From the NCBI GenBank assembly GCA_012034865.1, contig JAAUOM010000010.1, positions 1-64,000 on the forward strand: a stretch of 64,000 nucleotides of DNA. The letters are read 5' to 3'. Shown here piece by piece: positions 365 to 62,260 of this stretch. This DNA is from Acaryochloris sp. CRU_2_0 (GTDB taxonomy: Bacteria > Cyanobacteriota > Cyanobacteriia > Thermosynechococcales > Thermosynechococcaceae). The notes beneath the pieces were generated by a model. The model did not search any database. It was not told the origin of the DNA and worked only from the letters and a program-made list of their open reading frames with translations. Made by a program: the position numbers and the translations under genes. Each line of letters opens with the position of its first letter. Position 1 is the stretch's first letter.

Positions 365-1089
365 ATGAATCAAGACTCTTATCTCTCAAATAAACCTATC
401 GACGTCAATGAAAGACTGATTTTTGCCCTTGATTTTGAGAGCAATGATCAAGCCAAGAAGATCGTAGAAACCTTGGGGGATGCTGTCAATTTTTACAAGC
501 TGGGGCTAGAGCTTTTTATGGCTGGCAGCTATTACGAGATGGTTGATTGGCTTGTTCAGCAGGATAAAAAGTATTCGTTGATCTGAAGTTTTTCGATGTG
601 CCTCAAACCGTAGGCTCTGCGGTCAGACAGTTAAAAAATAAAGGCGCAACTTTTACTACCGTGCATGGGAACGACAGCATTTTAAGCTCGGCAGTCGCAG
701 AAAAAGGCGATCTAAAAATATTGGCTGTAACCGTTTTAACCAGTTTAGATCGTAGCGATCTAAAGGATCTAGGCTTTCAGGTTGATGTCGAACAACTCGT
801 ACTTTCAAGGGCGAAGAGATCTTTAAATTTAGGATGTGACGGCGTTATTTCCTCTGGGCTGGAAGCGCGAGGATTAAGAGATAGCTTAGGAGAAAACTTT
901 TTAATTGTCACCCCTGGTATTAGGCCTGTTGATAATACAGACGATCAAAAGCGAACAGTAGACATCGAAGAAGCTTTCTTGAACGGAGCAGATTATATTG
1001 TTGTTGGCAGGCCCATCAAGCTTGCTGACGATCCATGTCGGACTGCATGTGCATTCCAAGAGCGGATTAGAAGAGTGTTTGAAGGCTAA
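365..1089 (+). CDS. pyrF: Orotidine 5'-phosphate decarboxylase (frame broken by one missing base)
   Basis: Decarboxylates OMP to UMP, the last step of de novo pyrimidine synthesis, in the cytosol. Family motifs are ALDF near residue 22, DLKFFDVP with the catalytic Lys/Asp, TVHG, TPGIRP and VGRPI at the phosphate site. Frame 365-586 stops early and the protein continues in another frame to 1089. Adding one A to the A5 run near 563 restores KKVFVDLKFFDVP and a 241-residue protein, the normal family length. The start ATG at 365 follows an AGAGG box. The break sits in the active-site region, so it is either lethal to function or, more likely, a sequencing error. Confidence 0.93.
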
Positions 1090-2258: not shown

Positions 2259-2279
2259 GTGCCCAAATAATTTGGGCAC
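2259..2279. promoter_or_regulatory. Perfect inverted repeat upstream of the ParA-like module
   Basis: GTGCCCAAA-TAA-TTTGGGCAC, 9-bp arms around a 3-bp spacer, 32 bp before the start of the nuclease-ParA gene. No T-run follows it on either strand, so it fits an operator better than a terminator. Autoregulation by the module is a guess. Confidence 0.45.
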
Positions 2280-2311
2280 AATAGCTAGCAGTAAACCGTT
2301 ATAGGATAGCA

Positions 2312-3704
2312 ATGTCAGCTTTTGATCCTGAATTCTGTCGTAATGAAAGAGATGTTGAAGGCAAACTAATCATTCAATATTTGCTGCCCGAACTGGGATA
2401 TACCCCAGAAACGTGGCATCAAGAATGGTTCTTCGGAAATATTCGCCTGGATTTCTTAGCTTTTAAAAAAAGAATCTTTTCTTATGCCCTGGATGGAGAT
2501 ACAAATCCATGTCTGATTATAGAGACAAAGCATCCTAAACAGGATTTAGAAGTCCATGTAGTTCAACTAGAATGCTATCTAAACAGGTTAAAAGTAGAAT
2601 TTGGTTTGCTAACTAATGGTAGAGAAATCAGAATATACAAACAAAGCCAAAATATTCTTCATTTATTATTTCGCTGTTTTGGTAAAGAGGTCCAAAACAA
2701 TATTGGACTAATTAGAGAAATTATTGGACACGAGAATCTAAGTCAGAAAGATTATAGCTCAACTCAAGCTAATAACAAAATATCTGAGAATATAACAGCT
2801 AAACAAATTAATCAAACCAATCCTGAAACTAATCCAAGGGAGCAAAATATGAAAGTAATTACCATCTATCATAATAAAGGCGGTGTTGGGAAAACAACTG
2901 TATCAGTAAATCTTGCCGCAGCATTGCAAAATAAGGGTAAAAGGGTTCTTCTAATCGATATTGATGCACAAGCCAATTCAACCTTTTCTACTGGATTAGT
3001 CAAGTTCCAGTTCAACGAAGACGATAATCTAAAAGATAACAACGTCTATCACCTAATTGAGTCTGGAGATTTTAATTTCATTTCAGATCTAAAACGCGAT
3101 CGCAATTATTTAATAGCCCAGAGATTGATGTTATTCCATCTCATATTAATTTGATTGACAATCAAGATAAACTAACTCGATTTGCAGCTTCAAGGTTCCG
3201 TCTTCATCATAAAATACAGCAAGCTAAAGATGATTATGATATTGTTATAATTGATGCTCCTCCTTCAAGGGATGTTTATGCAGAGATAGCATTGATTGCT
3301 GCTGATTATCTGATTATTCCTTCTGATTTAAAACCCTTTGCTAATCAAGGACTTTCTAATGTCAAGGATTTTGTCGCAGAAATCGATGAGACACGAACAA
3401 GTATAGGGAAAGATAAGCTGAATGTTATCGGTGTTTTACCGTCTAAAATTTTAAGCAATAATAAATATATGAACTTTGTTTTTCCCAAGCAAAAGCAACA
3501 ATCATAGATCATTATGATTTTCCAATTATGGAAAGCATTATCTATGAACGTATGGCCTTATCAAATTGTCTCAACAAAACCATTATGGCTGGAGTTCATA
3601 ATTTACCTGATCCAAAATCTATTTTTGAGTTTGACAGAGACTCCGAATCTGTCAAAGAGTTTAGGAATTTGGCTGCTGAGGTCTTGAACAAGATTAGCGA
3701 GTAA
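2312..3704 (+). CDS. PD-(D/E)XK nuclease-like domain fused to ParA-type ATPase (two missing bases)
   Basis: After restoring two single bases this is one 464-residue protein. Residues 1 to about 125 look like an HsdR-type N-terminal nuclease domain: E16, D47, E71-T-K73 and Q85xxxY89 fit the PD-(D/E)XK core plus the QxxxY motif. A polar linker leads to a ParA/MinD-type P-loop ATPase from about residue 180, with the deviant Walker A KGGVGKTT, DIDAQANST and later VIIDAPPS. Breaks near 3110 (TTAAT) and 3489 (CCCAAG) are each fixed by one A. An AAGGGAG box at 2836-2842 precedes an internal ATG at 2849, so a ParA-only product may also be made. A downstream ParB-like gene starts 3 bp after the stop. 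The role may be partition or defence; this is unresolved. Confidence 0.8.
2836..2851 (+). promoter_or_regulatory. Internal ribosome site and start of the ParA part
   Basis: AAGGGAG followed by a 6-nt spacer and ATG at 2849, in frame with the fusion gene. The ATG begins the segment MKVITIYHNKGG, exactly where an ordinary ParA would start. This suggests two products, full-length fusion and short ATPase (inference). Confidence 0.5.
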
Positions 3705-3707
3705 GAA

Positions 3708-4417
3708 ATGACTGAATATTATTTGGTAGACGTCAAAAGTATCTCTTCCAATCAACGCCGTTCAAGCTTTAATGAAAATGATTTAGATAAACTTGCAAGA
3801 AGTATTCTTGATTCTGAGATATTACTCAAACCATTAATTTTAAATCAAACAGGCCCTGAATCTTATGAAGTTATTGATGGCAATTTTGAGTATTATAGTG
3901 CTGTCAGAGCAAAGGAAATTAATCCTAGAGGTGGAGAAATGGTGAGTGCATTTGTGATCTCACCGAAAGACCAAAAAATATAACTGAACAACTCTCTATT
4001 CTTAATGCAGCTATTAATCGAACTGTAAGTTCTCCAAGTATTCCAATTAATAATACCGAATCGGATCAACGGTTATCAAATCTTGAAGCTCATGTAGATA
4101 GAGCAATTGCAGATATTAAAGATGAATCTAGGAAAGAATTTCAAAGGCTTAATAACCAAATCACTGACCTAAAAACCCAGCTTCCTCAAAAAATTGAAGC
4201 TCTAGAAGTCCTTAACAACTTTGGTAAAGTTGAGCTTACTTTAAAACTGCAAATGGCTAGTATCAAAGGCAAAACAGCCGAGAAAATCATTACAAGCATA
4301 CTTAAGGAACGTAAGAAGCAAGGTTTTAGCTCCTTTTCTGATGTTGTCAAACGTGTGGAAGGATTAGGCGATAAAAGAATGGTGGCAATTCTTGATGCCT
4401 GGAATGGAACATTTTAG
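3708..4417 (+). CDS. ParB-like protein with coiled coil and C-terminal helix-hairpin-helix (one missing base)
   Basis: Starts 3 bp after the nuclease-ParA stop, so the two form an operon. The first 90 residues resemble a ParB N-terminal domain (VKSISSNQRRSSF, LLKPLILN, VIDGNFEYYSAVRAKE), though the canonical GERRxRA box is replaced. One extra A in the A6 run at 3973-3978 joins this to a second part with a polar coiled coil and a final helix-hairpin-helix-like segment (VVKRVEGLGDKRMVAILDAW). Full length is 236 residues. HhH ends bind DNA non-specifically. It is probably the DNA-binding partner of the ATPase; the classical ParB HTH was not seen. Confidence 0.68.
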
Positions 4418-6000: not shown

Positions 6001-6036
6001 TCCTCATCCAACCAACCTGACGGTACGGTTGGAGAT
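6001..6036 (-). repeat. Probable right-end hairpin of the TnpB element
   Basis: On the minus strand CCAACC and GGTTGG pair around a loop that overlaps the last codons and stop of tnpB. IS200/IS605-type elements have subterminal hairpins at their ends, and in TnpB systems the guide RNA is read from this 3' region. The exact end was not determined. Confidence 0.45.
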
Positions 6037-7269
6037 TCCTTGAGTCACCCCAAAGAGTTCCTGCTTCAGCGCCAGTTGACTAGACACTGTAACCAGCGCC
6101 CCCGTCACCTCGACTCCACAGGCATTTTCTATTCCCCGTTGCCCACGGGTACAAATCACTTGACCAGATGCCACATCACGGGGCTTGATTGACCCGCAGG
6201 CGTGGCAATGATGAATCCTGATACCCAGATCTTTGCGAACCTCAGCACCACAGTCTGGGCACTCCTGAGAGGTGCCACGGGCATCAACTTTGCCGTAATA
6301 CACATCCCGCTTAAAACACACCCAAGGCAGAATCTGGTTGACAAACTGACCCAACCCCGCATCTAAGGTGTGCTTACCCAACATCCCCTTGGCCATGATC
6401 CGGAAGTCTAAATCTTCCACAAATACCATCCCTGCATGGCTGCACAGATGATGAGCCAACTTAAACTGCCAGTCTTTGCGGGTGTCGGCAATCCGCTGAT
6501 AAACTCTGGCAATCTTGCGTTGGAGTTTGAGCCAATTATTGCTTCCTCTAACCTTCGTCTTGAGTCTACGTTGCAGCAATTTCAGCTTGCGGTGTAGCGC
6601 ATTGAAAAAGCGAGGACGCTTGACCTGTTCTCCATCTGAGGTGGCCAGAAAATATTCCAGTCCCACATCAATGCCGACCGGATGGCCGTGGGGCATCACA
6701 GCAGGAATTTCAACATCGGACTGAAGGCTCACCAGGACAAAATACCCCGATGCCTTGCGGACAATTCGGGCTTGCTTGATCCTAAACCAGTCAGGGATTC
6801 CCCGTGACCAGCGGACCCGAATTAAACCCAGTTGCGGCAGTTTGATTCCTTCACTAGACACACAGTTTCTGAGCATCTGCGGAAAGAGAAATGACCGCAT
6901 TCGACCAGACTTCTTGAACCGAGGGAAACCAGACCGCTTTAATCGCCAGGACTCCCAAGCAGCATCCAGTTTTCTCAAGAGTTGTTGCAGCATCTGGGCG
7001 TTCACAGAGCGCAGGTGTTCAATTTCCTGCTTGGCCATGGTTAACGACTTAGCCTGTCGGTGATACCCAGGAAAGGGCTGATCACAAGCAAGGATATACT
7101 CGCTACGCAGTGAGCAGGCATTGATTGGGCACTTGCGAGAATTCAGCCAGTCCTTGCGTTCGCGCAGGGCAAAATTCCAAACTTGACGACATATTTCTAG
7201 AGTACGCTCAATCTCGCAAACTTGCTCAGCAGTTGGCTCTAGCTTGAATTCCCAGGTCATGTTAAGCAT
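6004..7269 (-). CDS. tnpB: TnpB, RNA-guided nuclease of an IS200/IS605-type (IS1341-like) element
   Basis: A 421-residue RuvC-like nuclease, the usual size. The catalytic triad is intact: Asp in GIDVGLEYF (about residue 200), Glu in VFVEDLDF (about 284), Asp in PRDVASG (about 364). A zinc ribbon ECPDCG...CHACG lies between the last two. The start MLNMTWEFKLEPT is chosen because family proteins begin with this segment; the frame stays open 80 codons further upstream without family-like sequence. No tnpA transposase is nearby, so this is a TnpB-only element. In the family TnpB with its omega RNA cuts DNA and promotes element retention. Confidence 0.92.
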   Translation of the reverse strand: MLNMTWEFKLEPTAEQVCEIERTLEICRQVWNFALRERKDWLNSRKCPINACSLRSEYILACDQPFPGYHRQAKSLTMAKQEIEHLRSVNAQMLQQLLRKLDAAWESWRLKRSGFPRFKKSGRMRSFLFPQMLRNCVSSEGIKLPQLGLIRVRWSRGIPDWFRIKQARIVRKASGYFVLVSLQSDVEIPAVMPHGHPVGIDVGLEYFLATSDGEQVKRPRFFNALHRKLKLLQRRLKTKVRGSNNWLKLQRKIARVYQRIADTRKDWQFKLAHHLCSHAGMVFVEDLDFRIMAKGMLGKHTLDAGLGQFVNQILPWVCFKRDVYYGKVDARGTSQECPDCGAEVRKDLGIRIHHCHACGSIKPRDVASGQVICTRGQRGIENACGVEVTGALVTVSSQLALKQELFGVTQGISNRTVRLVG

Positions 7270-7627
7270 GTCTACAATATTAACATCTCTATTGTAGGTG
7301 TTGCGCTGTTGGTCTTTTTGGTCGTGCTCCGCTACACCCCCAGCCCAATCAACGATTATGGCTGGAGTACTGCGAAGTTTCCCGATAGCGGCTATCCCCT
7401 CAGAACACTCACTCACAATAATTATTATTCTCAGCTTTGGTAACTTGTAACGATCAACACTTTTTTTCTTGTGTTCTAGTTGACGATCAAGAACAAGCTG
7501 GTATGGCAAGCAATAGACTTGTTATTTCAGGTCTGTGACTTAGTGTCTTCAGCGGCTGAAATTAATTCATTAATACTGAATCAACTGAATTTATGGGTTG
7601 ATTTGGGGGCATGGCTGACGAGTGATC

Positions 7628-39506: not shown

Positions 39507-40951
39507 ATGGCCGAAATTCTATCCAATACGGTGGCGCTGTCGCGAATGCAGTTTGCACTAACTGCTATTTTTCACATGCTCTGGCCCATTTTGACCACTG
39601 GAATGGCGATTTATCTAGTCATGGTGGAAGGGATGTGGCTAAGGACACGCAATCCAGATTATTATCACCATGCCCGTTTCTGGTCTAAGCTCTACGTCCT
39701 CAATTTCGGTGTTGGAGTTGCGTCAGGACTGCCGATGGAATTTCAATTTGGCACCAACTGGGCACCTTTCTCGGAAGCAGTCGGTGACTTTTTTGGTAGC
39801 ATTCTCGGTTTTGAGGCGGCAATGGCGTTCATGCTGGAAGCTGGATTTCTGGGCATCATGCTGTTCGGTTGGGAGCGGGTGCATCCGGTGATTCACTATC
39901 TGGCAACCATCATGGTTGCCTTTGGTGCCAATCTGTCTACCTTCTGGATTTTAGTTGCTAATTCCTGGCTGCAATCGCCAACGGGCGGAGCAATGGTGAA
40001 CGGCAAATTTATCGTTAGCGACTACTTTCAGGCAATTTTGAATCCCTTCATGGTCAAAAGCGTGGCGCATATGTTTTTAGCTACGTTGGAAACGTCTTTA
40101 TTTGTGATTGGTGGCATTAGCGCCTGGTATATTCTGAACCAGCGTCATCAGGTATTCTTTGCGCGATCGCTCAAAATTGTGATTGCCGCTGCGATCGCCG
40201 TGGCACCCCTGCAAATCTACATCGGACATTTGAGTGCTGAACAGGTCTATCACTATCAGCCCACCAAGCTAGCAGCCATGGAAGCCAAGTGGGAAACCAG
40301 CCCTGCCGGACAGCCTGCCGATTGGAGTGTGCTGGCATTGCCCGATGAAACAGGGGAAAAAATCGCTGGGAACTGACCATTCCTAACGCCCTCGGTTACA
40401 TTTTGGAGTTCAAACCGACGCTCTCTGAACCCGTTTTGGGGTTGAAAGAATGGCAGCCCAAGGATCGCCCTCGCATGGTGGGATTAATCTACTATTCCTT
40501 CCGGATCATGAGCGGGATTGGGTTTTTCCTGGCAGGACTAATGCTGTGGAGTGGCTTGCAGTGGCTGCTGGGCAATCTTTCCTCCAAAAAAATTGCTCAA
40601 CAGAAATGGCTACTACGGGGCTGGATTTTCGCAGCTCCCCTAGGCTACATCGCCGTTGAAGCAGGTTGGATTGTGCGCTGCGTCGGTCGGCAACCCTGGA
40701 CACTGTATGGTCAAATTCGCACTGCTGATGCGGCTTCCCAACTTCCAGCCAGTAACGTTCTCACCTCTCTAACTGCCTTCGCTGTGATCTATGCCATTCT
40801 GTTTGTTTCGGCACTGTACTTTGGCAGTCAGATCCTCCGCAAAGGTCCCAATCTCGAACTTCCCGTTCCCGGACTGGATAACCAGCCTGCGGTAGACACC
40901 ACTCCAGCCGAATTTATCCCTGACCAACGCCCCGTCAAAGCAGAACAGTAG
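39507..40951 (+). CDS. cydA: Cytochrome bd quinol oxidase subunit I (one missing base)
   Basis: Haem-bearing subunit of the bd oxidase, reducing oxygen with plastoquinol without pumping protons. Membrane helices are evident. LSRMQFALTAIFHMLWP holds the distal haem His, FEAAMAFMLEAGFLGIMLFGWER the conserved Glu pair, and WQPKDRP with LIYYSFRIMSG the second haem region. The raw frame stops at 40376; adding one A to the A6 run near 40364 gives EKNRWELTIPNALGY and a 481-residue protein. The Q-loop is short, as in the cyanide-insensitive (CIO) subtype. cydB starts 9 bp later. Confidence 0.95.
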
Positions 40952-45356: not shown

Positions 45357-45472
45357 AGGGTTGATCAACAGAGCTGCTTTTTCAGCATACCCACTTGCAC
45401 CTTGTTATCCTATGGGTTGGTAAAGGTTTACAGAAAATACCCTGTCAGTGCAGAACAGGTAGAGAAGCAAAG

Positions 45473-48400
45473 ATGAGTTTTTCCGCAATTGTGAAAGGGT
45501 TGGGGCGATCGCGCCTCTGTGAAGAGCTGCTGCTCAAGCTCCAGCAGCAGCATGTCTTAGATCTATGTGGGTTGCCCCGTCTGCCCAAGGGGTTGGTGGC
45601 CTCTGCCTTGGCTCAAGAGCAGCACCAGCCGCTATTGGTGGTCACCGCCACTTTAGAAGAATCAGGACGCTGGGCCACTCAGCTAGAAGCGATGGGATGG
45701 CAGACGGTCTATTTTTACCCCACCTCAGAAGCCTCTCCCTACGAAGCGTTAGATCGAGAATCAGAAATGATCTGGGGTCAATTACAAGTCCTCGCTGAGT
45801 TGCTGAGACTGCGTGCCCATCCCCAGGAAATGCCCTTAGCGATTGTGACCACAGAGCGCGCCCTTCAACCCCATTTACCCCCCGTCGAAGCCTTCGCCTC
45901 CTATTGCCTCACCCTAGAACCGGGGATTGAACTAGATCTAAAAACCTTGAGTGAGCGCCTAGCCCGTTTGGGGTACGAGCGGGTGCCTTTAGTGGAAACC
46001 GAAGGCCAATGGAGTCGGCGCGGCGATATTGTCGATCTGTTTCCCGTGGCCTCAGAGCTGCCGATCCGGCTGGAATGGTTTGGGGATGAACTAGAGAAAA
46101 TGCGGGAATTTGACCCCACGACGCAGCGCTCCCTGGATAGCAGTGACAAGCTCACCCTCACCCCCACCAGTTTTGCGCCAATTATCCTGGCAGCTCTCAG
46201 TGACGAACAGCGCTTACAGATCCAACCCTACTTAACGGCAGAAGAACAAGCCCTCCTAGAAACAGGTACCCTAGAAGGCAGTCAACGGTTTTTGGGATTA
46301 GCCTTCCCCACGCCTGCCTCGGTTCTGGATTACTTGCCAGCGCAGACCTTAGTTGTCATGGATGAACCGCATCAATGTCTTCCCCATTGCGATCGCTGGG
46401 TAGACCATGCCCAAGAGCAATGGCAAGCAGTGAATCAGCCAGCAGCCCCACTCCCCAAGCTGCATCAATCCTTTGAGACAACCCTAGGGCAAATCGAGGT
46501 CTTTGATCGGTTGTTTTTATCGGAGTTGGCAGAAACCCAGAGTGGCTTGAATCTGGCGAGTCGGAGGGTGCCGGCAGTCCCCCATCAGTTTGGCAAGTTA
46601 GCAGAGACGATTCGAGAAGAGCGCGATCGCAAATTTAGCGTCTGGCTAATTTCAGCCCAGCCCTCCCGATCCGTGGCTCTTTTGCAAGAGCATGATTGTC
46701 CTGCCCAGTTTGTGCCTAATCCCAAGGACTTTCTGGCCATAGACAAACTGCAAGAGCAGCATACCCCTGTTGCCCTCAAGTACTCTGGGCTGGCTGAACT
46801 GGAAGGCTTTATTCTACCGACCTTCCGCACGGTGGTGATTACAGATCGGGAATTTTTTGGCCAACATACCCTGGCCACGCCTACCTATATTCGCAAACGG
46901 CGGCGGGCCGCATCCAAACAAGTTGACCCTAATAAGCTGCAACCCGGAGATTATGTTGTTCATCGCAATCATGGGATTGGCAAATTTCTAAAGCTGGAAA
47001 GCCTCACCCTCAATCACGAAACCCGTGAATATCTGCTCTTGCAATATGCCGATGGCACCTTGAGGGTGGCTGCGGATCAGCTCGGTGCTCTGTCTCGGTT
47101 GCGGACGACAGGAGAAGGACATCCCCAACTCAACAAAATGACGGGGAAAGCTTGGCAAAAAACCAAGACCAAAGTTCGCAAATCCATCAAGAAATTGGCG
47201 GTGGATCTGCTGAAGCTCTATGCCCAACGCGCTCAACAGGAAGGATTCAGCTTCCCCATTGATCAGCCTTGGCAAGTAGAGATGGAAGAGTCCTTCCCCT
47301 ATCAGCCTACTCCCGATCAGCTCAAAGCCAGCCAAGATGTCAAACGCGATATGGAAAGCGATCGCCCCATGGATCGCCTCGTCTGTGGGGATGTGGGCTT
47401 TGGCAAACAGAAGTTGCCACTCGTGCCATCTTTAAGGCCGTCACCGCGGGCAAACAGGTGGCCTTGCTGGCTCCCACCACCATTTTGACGCAGCAGCATT
47501 ATCACACCCTGAAAGAGCGGTTTGTGCCCTATCCCATGCAAATTGGCCTGCTCAATCGCTTTCGCAGCGCCGAAGAGTGCAAAGACATTCAAAAACGCCT
47601 GCAAACGGGGGAACTGGATATTGTCGTCGGCACCCATCAGCTCCTCAGTAAACAGGTCAACTTTCGGGATTTGGGTCTACTCGTGATCGATGAAGAACAG
47701 CGGTTTGGCGTCAACCAAAAAGAAAAAATCAAAGCCCTGAAAACCCAAGTGGATGTCCTCACCCTGAGTGCAACCCCAATTCCTCGCACCCTGTATATGG
47801 CCTTATCCGGTGTCCGGGAAATGAGCCTGATTACCACACCGCCCCCTGCCCGACGGCCCATCAAACCCATCTGGCGGCCTATGATGTCGAAGCCATCCGC
47901 AGTGCGGTCCGCCAAGAATTAGATCGGGGGGGCCAAATTTTCTATGTTGTCCCCAGAGTCGAAGGCATTGAAGAAGTTGCCGCTAAATTGCGGGAAATGG
48001 TTGCCAGTGCCCGCATTGCCATTGCCCACGGTCAAATGGTGGAAGGCGAATTAGAAGCGACGATGCTGACGTTTAGTAATGGGGATGCCGATATTCTAGT
48101 ATGTACAACCATTGTCGAATCGGGACTGGATATCCCCAGGGTAAATACGATTGTGATCGAAGATGCCCAGAAGTTTGGTCTATCGCAACTCTATCAGCTC
48201 CGGGGTCGGGTAGGCAGAGCCGGGATTCAAGCCCATGCGTGGCTGTTGTATCCCCAGCAAAGCTCCCTCACAGAAAAAGCCCGACAACGGCTGCGCGCCC
48301 TCCAAGAATTTAGCCAATTGGGTTCGGGCTATCAGTTAGCGGTTCGAGATATGGAGATTCGCGGGGTAGGCAATTTACTGGGTGCAGAGCAATCCGGCCA

Positions 48401-48974
48401 AATGGAAGCCATTGGCTTTGATTTGTACATGGAGATGTTAGAGGAGTCGATTAATGAAATTCGCGGTCAAGAAATTCCCCAGGTGGATGATACCCAAGTG
48501 GACTTGAACCTGACGGCGTTTATCCCTGCCGATTACATCCCCGATTTAGATCAAAAGATGAGTGCTTACCGAGCCGTGGCCGCAGCCCAGACCAAAGCCG
48601 ACCTCATGCAAACCGCCGTGGACTGGAACGATCGCTATGGTTCCATTCCCGCTGCGGCTCAACAACTCCTGAACATTATGGAGCTAAAACAATTGGCCAA
48701 AGCATTAGGGTTCTCGCGCATTAAGCCGGAAGGGAAACAGCATGTCATTCTGGAAACACCCATGGCAGAACCCGCTTTTAAGGTCTTGCAAGAGAACTTG
48801 CCTGAACATTTGCGATCGCGCTTCGTTTACATCCCCGGCAAAATCACCGTCCGAGGATTGGGAATGATCAAGGCCGATGACCAGTTAGCCAGCCTGATTG
48901 ACTGGCTGGGGAAAATGCAAGGGGCATTACCTTCTCTAACGGCGGTGGAGACAGGAATGACCATGAAGGTCTGA
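45473..48974 (+). CDS. mfd: Transcription-repair coupling factor (two missing bases)
   Basis: Mfd displaces stalled RNA polymerase and recruits UvrA to lesions. The N-terminal UvrB-like modules ([27 protein letters not shown]) are followed by the CarD-like RNAP-interaction domain ([17 protein letters not shown]). The RecG-like translocase has Walker [10 protein letters not shown] at about 636, DEEQRFG at about 738, and [18 protein letters not shown]-domain completes it. Breaks near 47406 and 47869 are each fixed by one A in an AAA run ([22 protein letters not shown]), giving 1167 residues. Start [10 protein letters not shown] (45473) matches the family; the frame is open 26 codons further upstream. 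Confidence 0.96.
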
Positions 48975-59684: not shown

Positions 59685-62260
59685 ATGAATGCAGTCGAAA
59701 TCGAAGAAGCGGTTTCCCAGCTTGCGGGTTTGCCCTTTGACCCGGAAGAGTTTCCGTTTGCCTTTCTCGAAGCCTTTGGAAATAAGGCGACAACGATTAA
59801 GAAGCTCAGAAGTGATAGCTCGAATCAGTCTGACCTGCCCGGTGGCGTACTCCAGCGTAACAATATCCACTTGAAGATTTGTGGGTTGGGGGATGTAGGG
59901 GCGACGCTGAAGGCGTTGCGGGAGAGTGGGGCGACGGATGGGGAGGATTTTTGGCGCGGTTGATCTTCTGTTTTTTTGCGGAGGATACGAATATTTTCCA
60001 TAGTGAAGGGTTGTTTACGAATACGATCGCGCAGATGAGTGATGCCTCGAATACGCACGAGGTGTTGTCGGAGGTGTTTCGATCGATGTGTACGCCGATT
60101 CAGGAGCGTTCGCGTAGCGACTCCTTTGGAGTATCGGCAGCGGGGATTCGGGGTTGGGCAGATGTGTTTCCCTATGTGAATGGGGGACTGTTTTCAGATG
60201 GTGTTGAGGTTCCTCGCTTTAGTAAGATTGCCCGCTCCTACCTGCTGCACGTTGGCAATCTCGACTGGAAACAAATCAACCCCGATATTTTTGGGTTGAT
60301 GATTCAGGCGATCGCCGAGGACGAAGAACGCGGCGCGTTGGGGATGCACTATACCAGCGTGCCGAATATCCTCAAAGTGCTGAATCCGTTGTTTTTGGAT
60401 GACCTCCGCGCTCAACTTGGGTTGGCGGGGGAGAATGGGCGGAAGTTGTTGAATTTGCGGCAACGGATGGCGCGGATTCGGGTGTTTGATCCGGCCTGTG
60501 GGTCGGGGAATTTTTTGGTGATTGCTTATAAGGAGATGCGATCGCTCGAAGCCGAAATCAACCGTCGTCGGGGGCAACCCGATCGCCGCTCCGACATCCC
60601 CCTGACCAACTTTTGCGGTATCGAAATTCGGCATTTTGCCTGTGAGATTGCGCGGTTGGCGTTGATTATTGCCGAGTATCAGTGTGATTTGTTGTACCGG
60701 GGGCAGCGGTTGGCACTGGCAGAGTTTCTGCCCCTGAAGAATGACAACTGGATTACTTGTGGGAATGCGTTGCGGTTGGATTGGTTAAGTCTTTGTCCGC
60801 CGACGGGGACGGGGGTGAAGGTGCAGCGCGAGGATTTGGATTTGTTTAGTGCGCCAAATCAGGAGGCGGAAATTGAGTTTGAGAATGAGGGTGGGGAAAC
60901 GTATATTTGTGGGAATCCGCCTTATGTCGGCTCTAAGTGGCAGAATGCCGAACAGAAAAGAGATCTGCAAAGTATTTTTGATGGGCGAACCAAAAGTTGG
61001 AAATCCCTGGATTATGTCTCAGGTTGGTTTATGAAGGCAGCGGATTATGGCGAACAAACGAACGCTGCTGCTGCATTTGTGTCTACCAATTCAATTTGTC
61101 AAGGACAACAGGTGCCAATTCTGTGGTCGCTGATTTTTGCAACGGGGCATGAGATTACCTTTGCCCATACCTTGTTTAAGTGGGCTAACCTTGCAAGTCA
61201 CAATGCTGGCGTGACGGTTGTAATTGTCGAAATATCAAATCATATTGGAAAAACACGAAGGCTATTCATTAACTCAGATGAAAATACTATCCTCTCAAAG
61301 GATGTAAATAACATCAATGCCTATTTGATTGATGCACCTAATGTTGAAGTTAAGGTACAGAATATACCCTTGTTCGATCAATCTGCCATGCAGTTTGGAA
61401 ATCATCCTTACTATGGCGCAGCTCTTATTTTTTCGAGGGATGAAGCACGAAAGATTGTTGCTGAGGTATCTATAGCATCTCATTTTATTCGTCCCCTTTA
61501 TGGGTCAAAGGAGTTTATTTCAGCTTCCCCGCGTGCATGTTTGTGGATTGGGCAAGAAAATGCTAAAGCTGCTTTGGAAATACCACAGATTGCTAAAAAA
61601 CTAGAAGAGGTTTCTACGTCTCGTCTTGCAGCCAAACAAGATAAAGCTGCACAGAAATTAGCTAATACTCCTTATCGCTTTCGAGATCAATTTGTAGCTA
61701 AGTTCCATACCCTCGTTGTCCCCAGAGTAAGTTCGGAGAATCGTCCGTTCCTGCCTGTAGGTATACTTCCGGCATATGCAATTGTGCAAGAGAAAGCGTT
61801 TGCCCTCTACGATGCCCCACTCTGGAATATGGCACTAATTGCCTCCCGCCTCCACTGGGTCTGGATCGGCACCGTTTGCGTCCGCATGAGAACCGATTTC
61901 TCCTACTCCAACACCCTCGGCTGGAACACCTTCCCCGTAACCGCCCTCACCGATCGCAACAAACTCGACCTCACCTGCTGCGCCGAAGACATCCTCCTCG
62001 CCCGCGAACACTATTTTCCTGCCACGATCTCCGACATGTACGACCCCGATCGCATGGACAAGGAATTTTCGTTGGTTAGGGAAGCGCACGATCGCAATGA
62101 CGAAACCCTCGAACGCATCTACATCGGTCGCCGCTTCAAAAACGACACCGAACGGCTAGAAAAACTGTTTGAGCTATATACCAAAATGACTAGTCAGCAG
62201 ACATCACCGAAAAAGCCTGTCAAAGGTAAGACAAAAAGAGGCTCTGTTGACAAGAACTAA
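59685..62260 (+). CDS. MmeI-like adenine-specific DNA methyltransferase (one missing base)
   Basis: One added T in the T5 run near 59950 joins MNAVEIEEAVSQLAGLPFD...GATDGEDF to LARLIFCFFAEDTNIF, an 858-residue protein. SAM motif I is VFDPACGSGNFLVIAYKEM and motif IV NPPYVGSKW, so N6-adenine is the likely product. The target-recognition part and the conserved end (YIGRRFKNDTERLEKLFELYTKM) follow. From memory, relatives have 60-80 more residues at the junction, so an internal deletion is possible. A palindrome at 60103-60140 adds RSRSDSFGVSAAG. It belongs with the helicase at 63827 as a restriction or defence unit; higBA, DUF2281 and Uma2 lie between. Confidence 0.85.
60103..60140. repeat. Palindromic repeat inserted in frame in the methylase gene
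   Basis: GCGTTCGCGTAGCG followed by ACTCC-ttt-GGAGT resembles the small GCGTAGCG/GGAG palindromes common in cyanobacterial genomes. It is translated as part of a segment without family similarity. Confidence 0.5.

What the first reader, a model, noticed from the sequence alone, without database searches (positions are those of the whole stretch)
2259..4417. Nuclease-ParA fusion with ParB-like/HhH partner: a possible undescribed module
The ATPase carries an N-terminal domain with a complete PD-(D/E)XK pattern (E16, D47, E71-T-K73, Q85xxxY89), like the start of type I restriction HsdR subunits. The partner has a ParB-like front, a coiled coil and a C-terminal helix-hairpin-helix. A perfect 9-bp inverted repeat lies upstream. 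Known ParABS systems do not carry a nuclease on the ATPase, so a defence or DNA-clearing role is plausible, as is an unusual partition system.
Basis: partly seen in the sequence, partly recalled or inferred. Interest (0 to 1): 0.78.

Follow-up and report, generated by a model that had tools for sequence, protein, structure and literature searches.

The report
Nuclease-tagged ParA with swappable DNA adaptor
Many cyanobacteria carry a chromosomal gene pair in which a DNA-cutting domain is welded to a DNA-moving ATPase and paired with an adaptor whose DNA-binding end is swapped between species; some viruses carry a clipped copy of that adaptor, which suggests, but does not prove, a role in defence.

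Summary
In detail: residues 19-112 of the ATPase match HSDR_N_2 above cut-off, a Soj-type ParA follows, and the partner is ParB_N plus coiled coil plus helix-hairpin-helix. In this contig both genes are frame-broken, as are pyrF, cydA and mfd beside them, so assembly indels are the likely cause; most relatives are open. The nuclease-type domain was found in 64 of 386 cyanobacterial genomes. E12, D47, E71, K73 and Y89 are kept in 134 of 134 fused sequences, 126 distinct; Q85 is not. New findings: (1) an internal start codon, usually with a Shine-Dalgarno-like site, lies where free ParA would begin, so one gene probably makes fusion and free ParA; (2) the nuclease domain seems repeatedly lost while the pair persists; (3) the partner's tail is swapped at one locus between near-identical modules; (4) three IMG/VR contigs carry the partner's ParB-like domain alone, like decoys. 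Best reading: an ATP-gated, DNA-tethered nuclease module, probably acting on foreign DNA. Against it: no defence-gene enrichment in the flanks, stable chromosomal sites, nuclease loss. Nothing is shown biochemically.

The parts
2259..2279 (.). Perfect 9-bp inverted repeat with 3-nt spacer upstream of the ATPase gene; real but not conserved in relatives, probably not part of the module
2312..2746 (+). N-terminal PD-(D/E)XK nuclease-type domain (residues about 1-145; Pfam match 19-112; E12, E16, D47, E71, K73, Y89)
2836..2851 (+). Shine-Dalgarno-like AAGGGAG (2836-2842) and internal ATG (2849-2851, M180), the probable start of free ParA
   Evidence: sequence; conservation in relatives
2849..3704 (+). 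ParA/Soj ATPase domain (Walker A KGGVGKTT), in three frames here: to about 3112, then to about 3490, then to the stop at 3702-3704
   Evidence: Soj fold for an intact relative
3708..3980 (+). ParB_N-like domain of the adaptor (partner) gene, first frame
   Evidence: fold of a relative
3971..4417 (+). Coiled coil and HhH-type tail of the adaptor, second frame (frame change near 3950-3980)
   Evidence: domain order from the model of a relative

Best explanation
A two-gene chromosomal module of cyanobacteria that works as an ATP-gated, DNA-tethered nuclease. Gene 1 probably gives two proteins: full-length nuclease-ParA from the first start codon and free ParA from an internal start. ParA binds ATP, dimerises and coats DNA (inferred from the Soj fold and kept Walker A motif). 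The adaptor binds DNA with an exchangeable tail (HhH, Rho_N/SAP-like or another type) and engages ParA through its ParB-like domain (inferred). Dimerisation on marked DNA pairs two PD-(D/E)XK domains and allows cutting (inferred). The most likely target is foreign DNA, above all phage DNA, because phages carry the adaptor's ParB-like domain alone, which could occupy ParA and block recruitment. Shown by sequence: domain make-up, kept catalytic residues, a kept internal start codon, tail swapping, nuclease-free relatives nested among fused ones, short ParB-like genes in viral contigs. Not shown: nuclease activity, two products, complex formation, protection.
For: Catalytic residues kept in 134 of 134 fused sequences, among members as low as 23% identical to L033. 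Walker A invariant, Soj fold. Internal start, recounted at the fixed position: ATG 108 and GTG 7 in 115 of 115 clade A genes, ATG in 9 of 10 clade B genes; Shine-Dalgarno match of 4 nt or more at 86 of 115 against 29.7 expected from synonymous shuffling in clade A, 4 of 9 against 1.8 in clade B (duplicates and the helicase-ParA gene included). First scoring: 90 of 124 against 32.1, and 69 of 1039 at other in-frame ATG/GTG; in 73 thinned representatives 50 against 18.5, largest of 200,000 simulations 35. Stand-alone ParAs L060, L080, L166, L167 begin at that codon. Tails of 122 partners (115 distinct): 89 HhH, 16 Rho_N-like, 10 a third type, 7 unclassified; L138 and L140 are 96% identical in fusion and in ParB-like domain with different tails. 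Three IMG/VR contigs with stand-alone ParB-like domains of 101, 100 and 110 aa, best identities to cellular adaptors 79%, 55% and 49%, against 1 of 136 cellular partners of 130 aa or less. One has promoter- and terminator-like repeats in a contig with head, lysis, ERF, ThyX and type I-C cas genes.
Against: Flanks are not enriched in defence genes: 30 PADLOC families hit over 105 neighbours against 41 over 104 distal genes. In Nostocales the pair sits at a few recurring chromosomal sites. The nuclease seems to have been lost several times while ParA and adaptor stay. No PADLOC model fits beyond a ParA-part match to PDC-M28B, 39 bits at best. The phage copies are three contigs only and their function is unknown; a solved chain named Tail protein holds a similar ParB-like stretch. 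The part of the nuclease domain that holds the aspartate is modelled with pLDDT under 50, and a direct profile comparison with the HsdR of the own genome gave only 5.6% probability. The intact clade A relative L081 scores 23.6 bits against HSDR_N_2, just under the cut-off of 25.
Confidence: 0.42

Rival explanations
1. A chromosomal DNA-positioning or genome-maintenance module: ParA and adaptor organise or segregate chromosome copies in polyploid cyanobacteria, and the nuclease trims or resolves DNA, dispensably. Phage copies would hijack positioning for the phage's own DNA.
For: On chromosome-sized contigs where these exist, one place per genome in the 64 genomes, recurring synteny in Nostocales. 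Core pair kept without nuclease in L060, L080, L166, L167 and L177. No defence-gene enrichment in flanks. Soj and Noc/ParB folds.
Against: Patchy: 64 of 386 genomes. Tail swapping between near-identical modules is odd for housekeeping. No conserved centromere-like inverted repeat found upstream. Catalytic residues were not lost in any of the 134 fused sequences.
Confidence: 0.33
2. A conflict module of another kind: an incompatibility or toxin-antitoxin-like device in which ParA or adaptor restrain the fused nuclease and loss of control kills or clears a replicon.
For: Free ParA from the same gene could restrain the fusion. Precedents: orphan ParI destabilises IncP-7 plasmids (PMC9178275, passages); a HEPN-ParA pair was proposed as toxin-antitoxin (PMC3710099, passages).
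Against: The adaptor has DNA-binding-type tails rather than an antitoxin-like form. Nuclease loss leaves both other parts in place.
Confidence: 0.12
3. A decayed partition remnant captured from a plasmid, with no present function; the frame breaks in the window show decay.
For: Frame breaks in the window and in seven relatives that I inspected.
Against: Open frames of 449-532 aa in 57 of the 64 genomes, catalytic residues kept, no plasmid homologues of the whole fusion or of the partner, and pyrF, cydA and mfd are broken too in this contig.
Confidence: 0.05

Closest known systems
Soj/Spo0J (ParA/ParB) partition systems; Noc
   Same: ParA fold with Walker A motif; partner N-domain matches ParB/Noc structures; ATPase-then-adaptor gene order
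   Different: Nuclease-type domain on the ATPase; no ParB DNA-binding HTH domain found in six scanned partners; a coiled coil plus interchangeable tail instead; no conserved inverted repeat upstream
HsdR N-terminal domain of type I restriction enzymes (PF13588, PF04313)
   Same: Profile match and E/D/ExK pattern
   Different: Joined to ParA, not to a DEAD-type translocase; the adjacent partner is ParB-like
PadC ParB-like domain (6ryk)
   Same: Foldseek match to the ParB-like domain of the partner
   Different: Weak rank (E about 1e-3); here a DNA-binding-type tail follows
ParI, orphan ParA that destabilises IncP-7 plasmids (PMC9178275, passages seen)
   Same: Chromosomal ParA acting against a foreign replicon, if the defence reading is right
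   Different: In the passage it is an orphan: no adaptor or nuclease is mentioned
MAE_18760 HEPN gene next to a ParA/Soj ATPase (PMC3710099, passages seen)
   Same: ParA-type ATPase tied to a nucleic-acid effector in a conflict setting
   Different: RNase in a separate gene; no ParB-like adaptor mentioned
Endolysin genes with two in-frame ORFs that share a stop codon (PMC9430671, title and abstract start only)
   Same: A second in-frame start inside one gene
   Different: Unrelated proteins

Membership tests
PD-(D/E)XK, HSDR_N_2 | Profile match above curated cut-off | tested here: met
   Window 34.7 bits against 25, clade B L076 33.2; the intact clade A relative L081 falls just below at 23.6
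PD-(D/E)XK, HSDR_N_2 | Catalytic D ... E-x-K | tested here: met
   134 of 134, 126 distinct
PD-(D/E)XK, HSDR_N_2 | Fold of the core | tested here: inconclusive
   Order of helices and strands fits, but residues 35-55 have pLDDT under 50. Foldseek BFVD rank 4 is a phage protein named for the HsdR N-terminal domain, E 5e-4, aligned region not shown. Comparison with the HsdR of the own genome gave 5.6% probability. PDB by sequence: 3h1t (type I R subunit) only at E 0.088, behind an ISWI chain at 0.04
PD-(D/E)XK, HSDR_N_2 | DNA cleavage | not testable with these tools
   Needs assay
ParABS partition system | ParA with Walker motifs and Soj fold | tested here: met
ParABS partition system | ParB N-terminal domain in the partner | tested here: met
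   PF02195 38.9 bits in L081, cut-off 26.3; clade B L076 23.8, under it; ParB/Noc structures
ParABS partition system | ParB HTH domain for parS | tested here: not met
   Pfam finds none in 6 scanned partners; coil plus HhH-like, Rho_N, HeH-like or unknown tail instead
ParABS partition system | Centromere-like repeats near the operon | tested here: inconclusive
   No shared inverted repeat in 300 nt upstream of 134 genes; direct repeats and downstream DNA not surveyed
ParABS partition system | CTP-binding motifs of ParB | tested here: inconclusive
   By eye, the position of the GERR motif (motif recalled) reads GHFEYY in the partner consensus; no binding test
Type I restriction-modification | HsdR helicase motor | tested here: not met
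   The second domain is ParA
Type I restriction-modification | HsdM and HsdS partners | not tested
   No systematic search; the adjacent partner is ParB-like
Anti-phage systems in PADLOC 2.0.0 | Specific model match | tested here: not met
   Over seven proteins: PDC-M28B over the ParA part (39 bits at best); Cas4, mad and other matches only at E above 1e-5
Anti-phage system | Protects against phage | not testable with these tools
   Needs phage challenge

The most novel reading that the evidence does not exclude
A new kind of cyanobacterial antiviral machine in which a ParA ATPase, made both free and nuclease-tagged from one gene, is aimed by an adaptor with exchangeable DNA-reading tails; phages answer it with adaptor decoys that occupy ParA without bringing DNA.
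Probability: 0.38. Interest if true: 0.86.

Novelty: new variant of a known kind. Interest (0 to 1): 0.7.

Why it matters
ParA ATPases move DNA and organelles; here one carries a DNA-cutting domain and may be dosed by a second start codon. If it is defence, it adds a positioning-ATPase principle to antiviral immunity in phototrophs, and the phage ParB-like proteins are ready-made probes. If it is maintenance, it bears on how polyploid cyanobacteria look after chromosome copies.

Tried and rejected
Inverted repeat as operator or parS: rejected, not conserved. Plasmid origin: rejected; no plasmid record covers 80% of the fusion and none matches the partner. The clade A query had 4 records; the clade B query had 113, of which the 20 listed match the ParA part only and 93 were not seen (limits E 1e-20 and 1e-5). 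Phage homologues of the whole fusion: 151 records, none with 80% coverage, 15 listed. Defence island: PADLOC on 105 neighbours and 104 distal genes showed no enrichment. I gave 105 of 189 candidate neighbours (146 after a size limit, then thinned by hand) and 104 of 141 candidate controls. The outputs count families, not proteins, and the control genes lie within about 10 kb, so a wider island could be missed. Module as a simple insertion beside the 294-aa ParA: nine genomes without the fusion have other genes there, so no clean empty site. Frame breaks at an A-rich stretch of the ParA part of L117, L147, L159 and L067 as programmed frameshifting: not pursued, most genes are open there. L203, a further viral hit (38% over 42 residues), was dropped as chance. 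L074_14, a helicase-ParA fusion, was dropped from the counts but is in those. The window's own ParA was left out of the tree because it is in pieces; in that tree L179_12, L176_12 and L177_6 are long branches of unsure place, and the root is a midpoint. The first scoring of the internal start searched six codon positions and gave L056 a GTG; the fixed-position recount is.

Distribution outside cyanobacteria was not tested: the genome scan kept the best 80 of 198 relatives, all titled as cyanobacteria (118 not seen), and the whole-genome searches were within the window's phylum.

Full report
OBSERVATION. The window (C150 of a 4.89 Mb, 259-contig assembly; relatives titled cyanobacteria) holds at 2312-3704 a gene whose first domain matches HSDR_N_2 above its cut-off, followed by a ParA ATPase, and at 3708-4417 a partner with a ParB_N-like front and an HhH-type end. 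Both genes are broken in frame here. So are pyrF, of which the search found no other copy, cydA and mfd, so I take the breaks as probable assembly indels, not decay.

CONSERVATION. In the phylum sample, 61 of 292 genomes had a match to the window's first piece at E 1e-10, some to ParA only. With a profile of the nuclease domain, 64 of 386 genomes had a hit of at least 114 bits, with a gap down to 51 bits below (counted by hand from the list); 57 of the 64 have open frames of 449-532 aa there. I did not inspect ParA in each of the 64. A clade-A partner profile hit 57 of 386. The genome-contig scan found 198 relatives and kept 80, all with cyanobacterial titles. A clade A partner lies in 76 of these 80 loci; in L091, L095 and L136 the stretch ends first, and L150 is broken. 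Two clades exist: A (window-like) and B (another partner front end); B is one clade in the ParA tree. In 134 fused N-domains E12, D47, E71, K73 and Y89 are invariant and E16 is kept in 132; Q85 is Q in only 18. Eight genomes enter that count twice, through unnamed and named copies; 126 sequences are distinct.

PLASMIDS AND PHAGES. No plasmid record covers 80% of the fusion: clade A query 4 records, clade B query 113, those listed over the ParA part only; neither partner has a plasmid match. Phage records give 151 matches, none with 80% coverage. The module is chromosomal where contigs are large enough to tell.

INTERNAL START. The ParA part of the fusions begins with M in an otherwise variable linker. 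At that fixed position 115 of 115 clade A genes have ATG (108) or GTG (7), and 9 of 10 clade B genes ATG; the exception is L075_45 with ATT. A Shine-Dalgarno-like match of 4 nt or more lies 4-12 nt upstream in 86 of 115 clade A genes against 29.7 expected from synonymous codon shuffles, and in 4 of 9 clade B genes against 1.8. A first scoring gave 90 of 124 against 32.1, 69 of 1039 at other in-frame ATG/GTG, and 83 of 124 at the main start; in 73 representatives thinned by shared 12-mers, 50 against 18.5 expected, 48 of 615 at other in-frame ATG/GTG and 39 at the main start. Stand-alone ParAs of clade A (L060, L080, L166, L167) begin at this codon. In the ParA tree the eight nuclease-free rows need six changes, at least four on well-supported branches, so the domain has been lost repeatedly, or less likely gained; rows L176, L177 and L179 are long branches. 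One gene giving fusion plus free ParA is an inference from these facts.

ADAPTOR. An AlphaFold2 model of the partner of L081 has mean pLDDT 89.7: ParB-like domain about 3-83, helix, long coil 120-162, helical tail 166-239. The front matches Noc and ParB structures by sequence (E 1.4e-7 for Noc) and fold (E 1e-5). Tails by profiles made here from seeds: HhH 89, Rho_N-like 16, a third type 10, unclassified 7 of 122, of which 115 are distinct. Pfam supports Rho_N in L086 (35.7 bits, over cut-off) and gives weaker HhH and HeH matches elsewhere. L138 and L140 share the two upstream neighbours and a 294-aa ParA (same genomes as L044 and L045), are 96% identical in fusion and in ParB-like domain, but have different tails. 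Such swapping resembles exchange of recognition parts.

NEIGHBOURHOOD. In 37 of 79 loci a divergent 294-aa ParA lies within 3.3 kb upstream. It was found in 59 of 194 genomes and not in the window's own; 15 of 16 chosen genomes of one family also have it, and nine inspected there without the fusion have other genes beside it. Glycosyltransferase families are the commonest among 105 neighbours. PADLOC hits: 30 families over 105 neighbours against 41 over 104 distal genes, so no enrichment, although a PARIS AriAB-like gene is the next gene after the partner in L107. The label ileS used is my reading of the sequence, not scanned.

PHAGE COPIES. Scans of IMG/VR with the nuclease domain and with the clade B partner found nothing. 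With the clade A partner they found three contigs, each with only the ParB-like domain as a complete short gene: L161 5983-6288 (101 aa), L199 4998-5300 (100 aa), L201 4959-5291 (110 aa). A fourth weak hit was dropped (L203), and the L161 protein has no match in 50,697 phage records. Best identities to cellular adaptors are 79%, 55% and 49%, and 36-46% to each other, so they were probably captured separately; 1 of 136 cellular partners is 130 aa or shorter. By eye, no ParA is among the ORFs listed beside them. The L161 contig is viral by Phage_Mu_F, endolysin, ERF and ThyX genes and carries type I-C cas3, cas5, cas8c and cas7 genes, some under NCBIfam cut-offs but matched by Pfam; a terminase search of it found none. 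L199 and L201 rest on the collection's own classing; their genes were not profile-scanned. The short gene of L161 follows a 146-nt repeat, present three times, with terminator- and promoter-like sequences (promoter-like sites in that region 5 against 3.9 in shuffles, terminator-like 4 against 1.0). A clipped copy lacking the DNA-binding tail is what a decoy or dominant-negative inhibitor would look like. Another use by the phage is possible: a solved chain named Tail protein also holds a similar ParB-like stretch (9k3a, E 1e-8).

MECHANISM AND VERDICT. Shown: the parts, their conservation, the kept internal start codon, nuclease-free relatives, the tail swaps, the phage copies. Inferred: two products, DNA coating by ParA-ATP, recruitment by the adaptor, pairing of nuclease domains by ParA dimers, cutting, and foreign DNA as target. 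The phage copies and the tail swaps tip me towards defence over maintenance; missing flank enrichment, stable sites, nuclease loss and the unsettled nuclease fold hold the confidence down.

NOVELTY. No description appeared (full-text searches of open-licence papers; I saw titles and abstract starts, plus passages of PMC3710099, PMC9178275 and PMC12506020), nor, for phage ParB-like decoys, with passages of PMC12839542 and PMC12373910. Those passages show ParB-like domains in other defence systems (GmrSD, DndB) but not this pair. Subscription papers and preprints were not searched.

Noticed in passing
L161:5834-7030 and L198:1879-6823 (IMG/VR contig IMGVR_UViG_3300042471_001765): Phage contig with three 146-nt promoter/terminator-like repeats before small genes (one a ParB-like adaptor copy) and type I-C cas5, cas8c, cas7 and cas3 genes.
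   Followed up: partly
window 365-1089, 39507-40951, 45395-48974: pyrF, cydA and mfd are each split over frames, as is the module: the contig probably has indel errors.
   Followed up: partly
L074:6777-8345 (-): A ParA of this clade fused to an AAA_12 helicase C-terminal domain instead of the nuclease, beside a frame-broken clade B module and, by eye, RecB-like pieces.
   Followed up: partly
L081:3302-4186 and other Nostocales loci: A 294-aa stand-alone ParA lies divergently within 3.3 kb of the module in 37 of 79 loci and also occurs in genomes without it.
   Followed up: partly
L117, L147, L159, L067 near codons 200-222 of the fusion: Frame breaks cluster in the A-rich stretch just after the Walker A region; hypermutable tract, sequencing error or something else.
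   Followed up: partly
window 59879-62257: MmeI-type methyltransferase/TRD gene without a match to the N-terminal MmeI domain in the same frame at E 1e-5.
   Followed up: no
window 6004-7509 (-): OrfB_IS605-type protein with a Cas12f1-like TNB domain.
   Followed up: no
L107:8188-9891 (-): AriAB-like (PARIS) gene right after the partner gene.
   Followed up: no
PDB 9k3a chain B, residues 1339-1406: A chain named Tail protein has a stretch that scores higher against the adaptor profile than ParB or Noc chains do; no paper found for it.
   Followed up: partly
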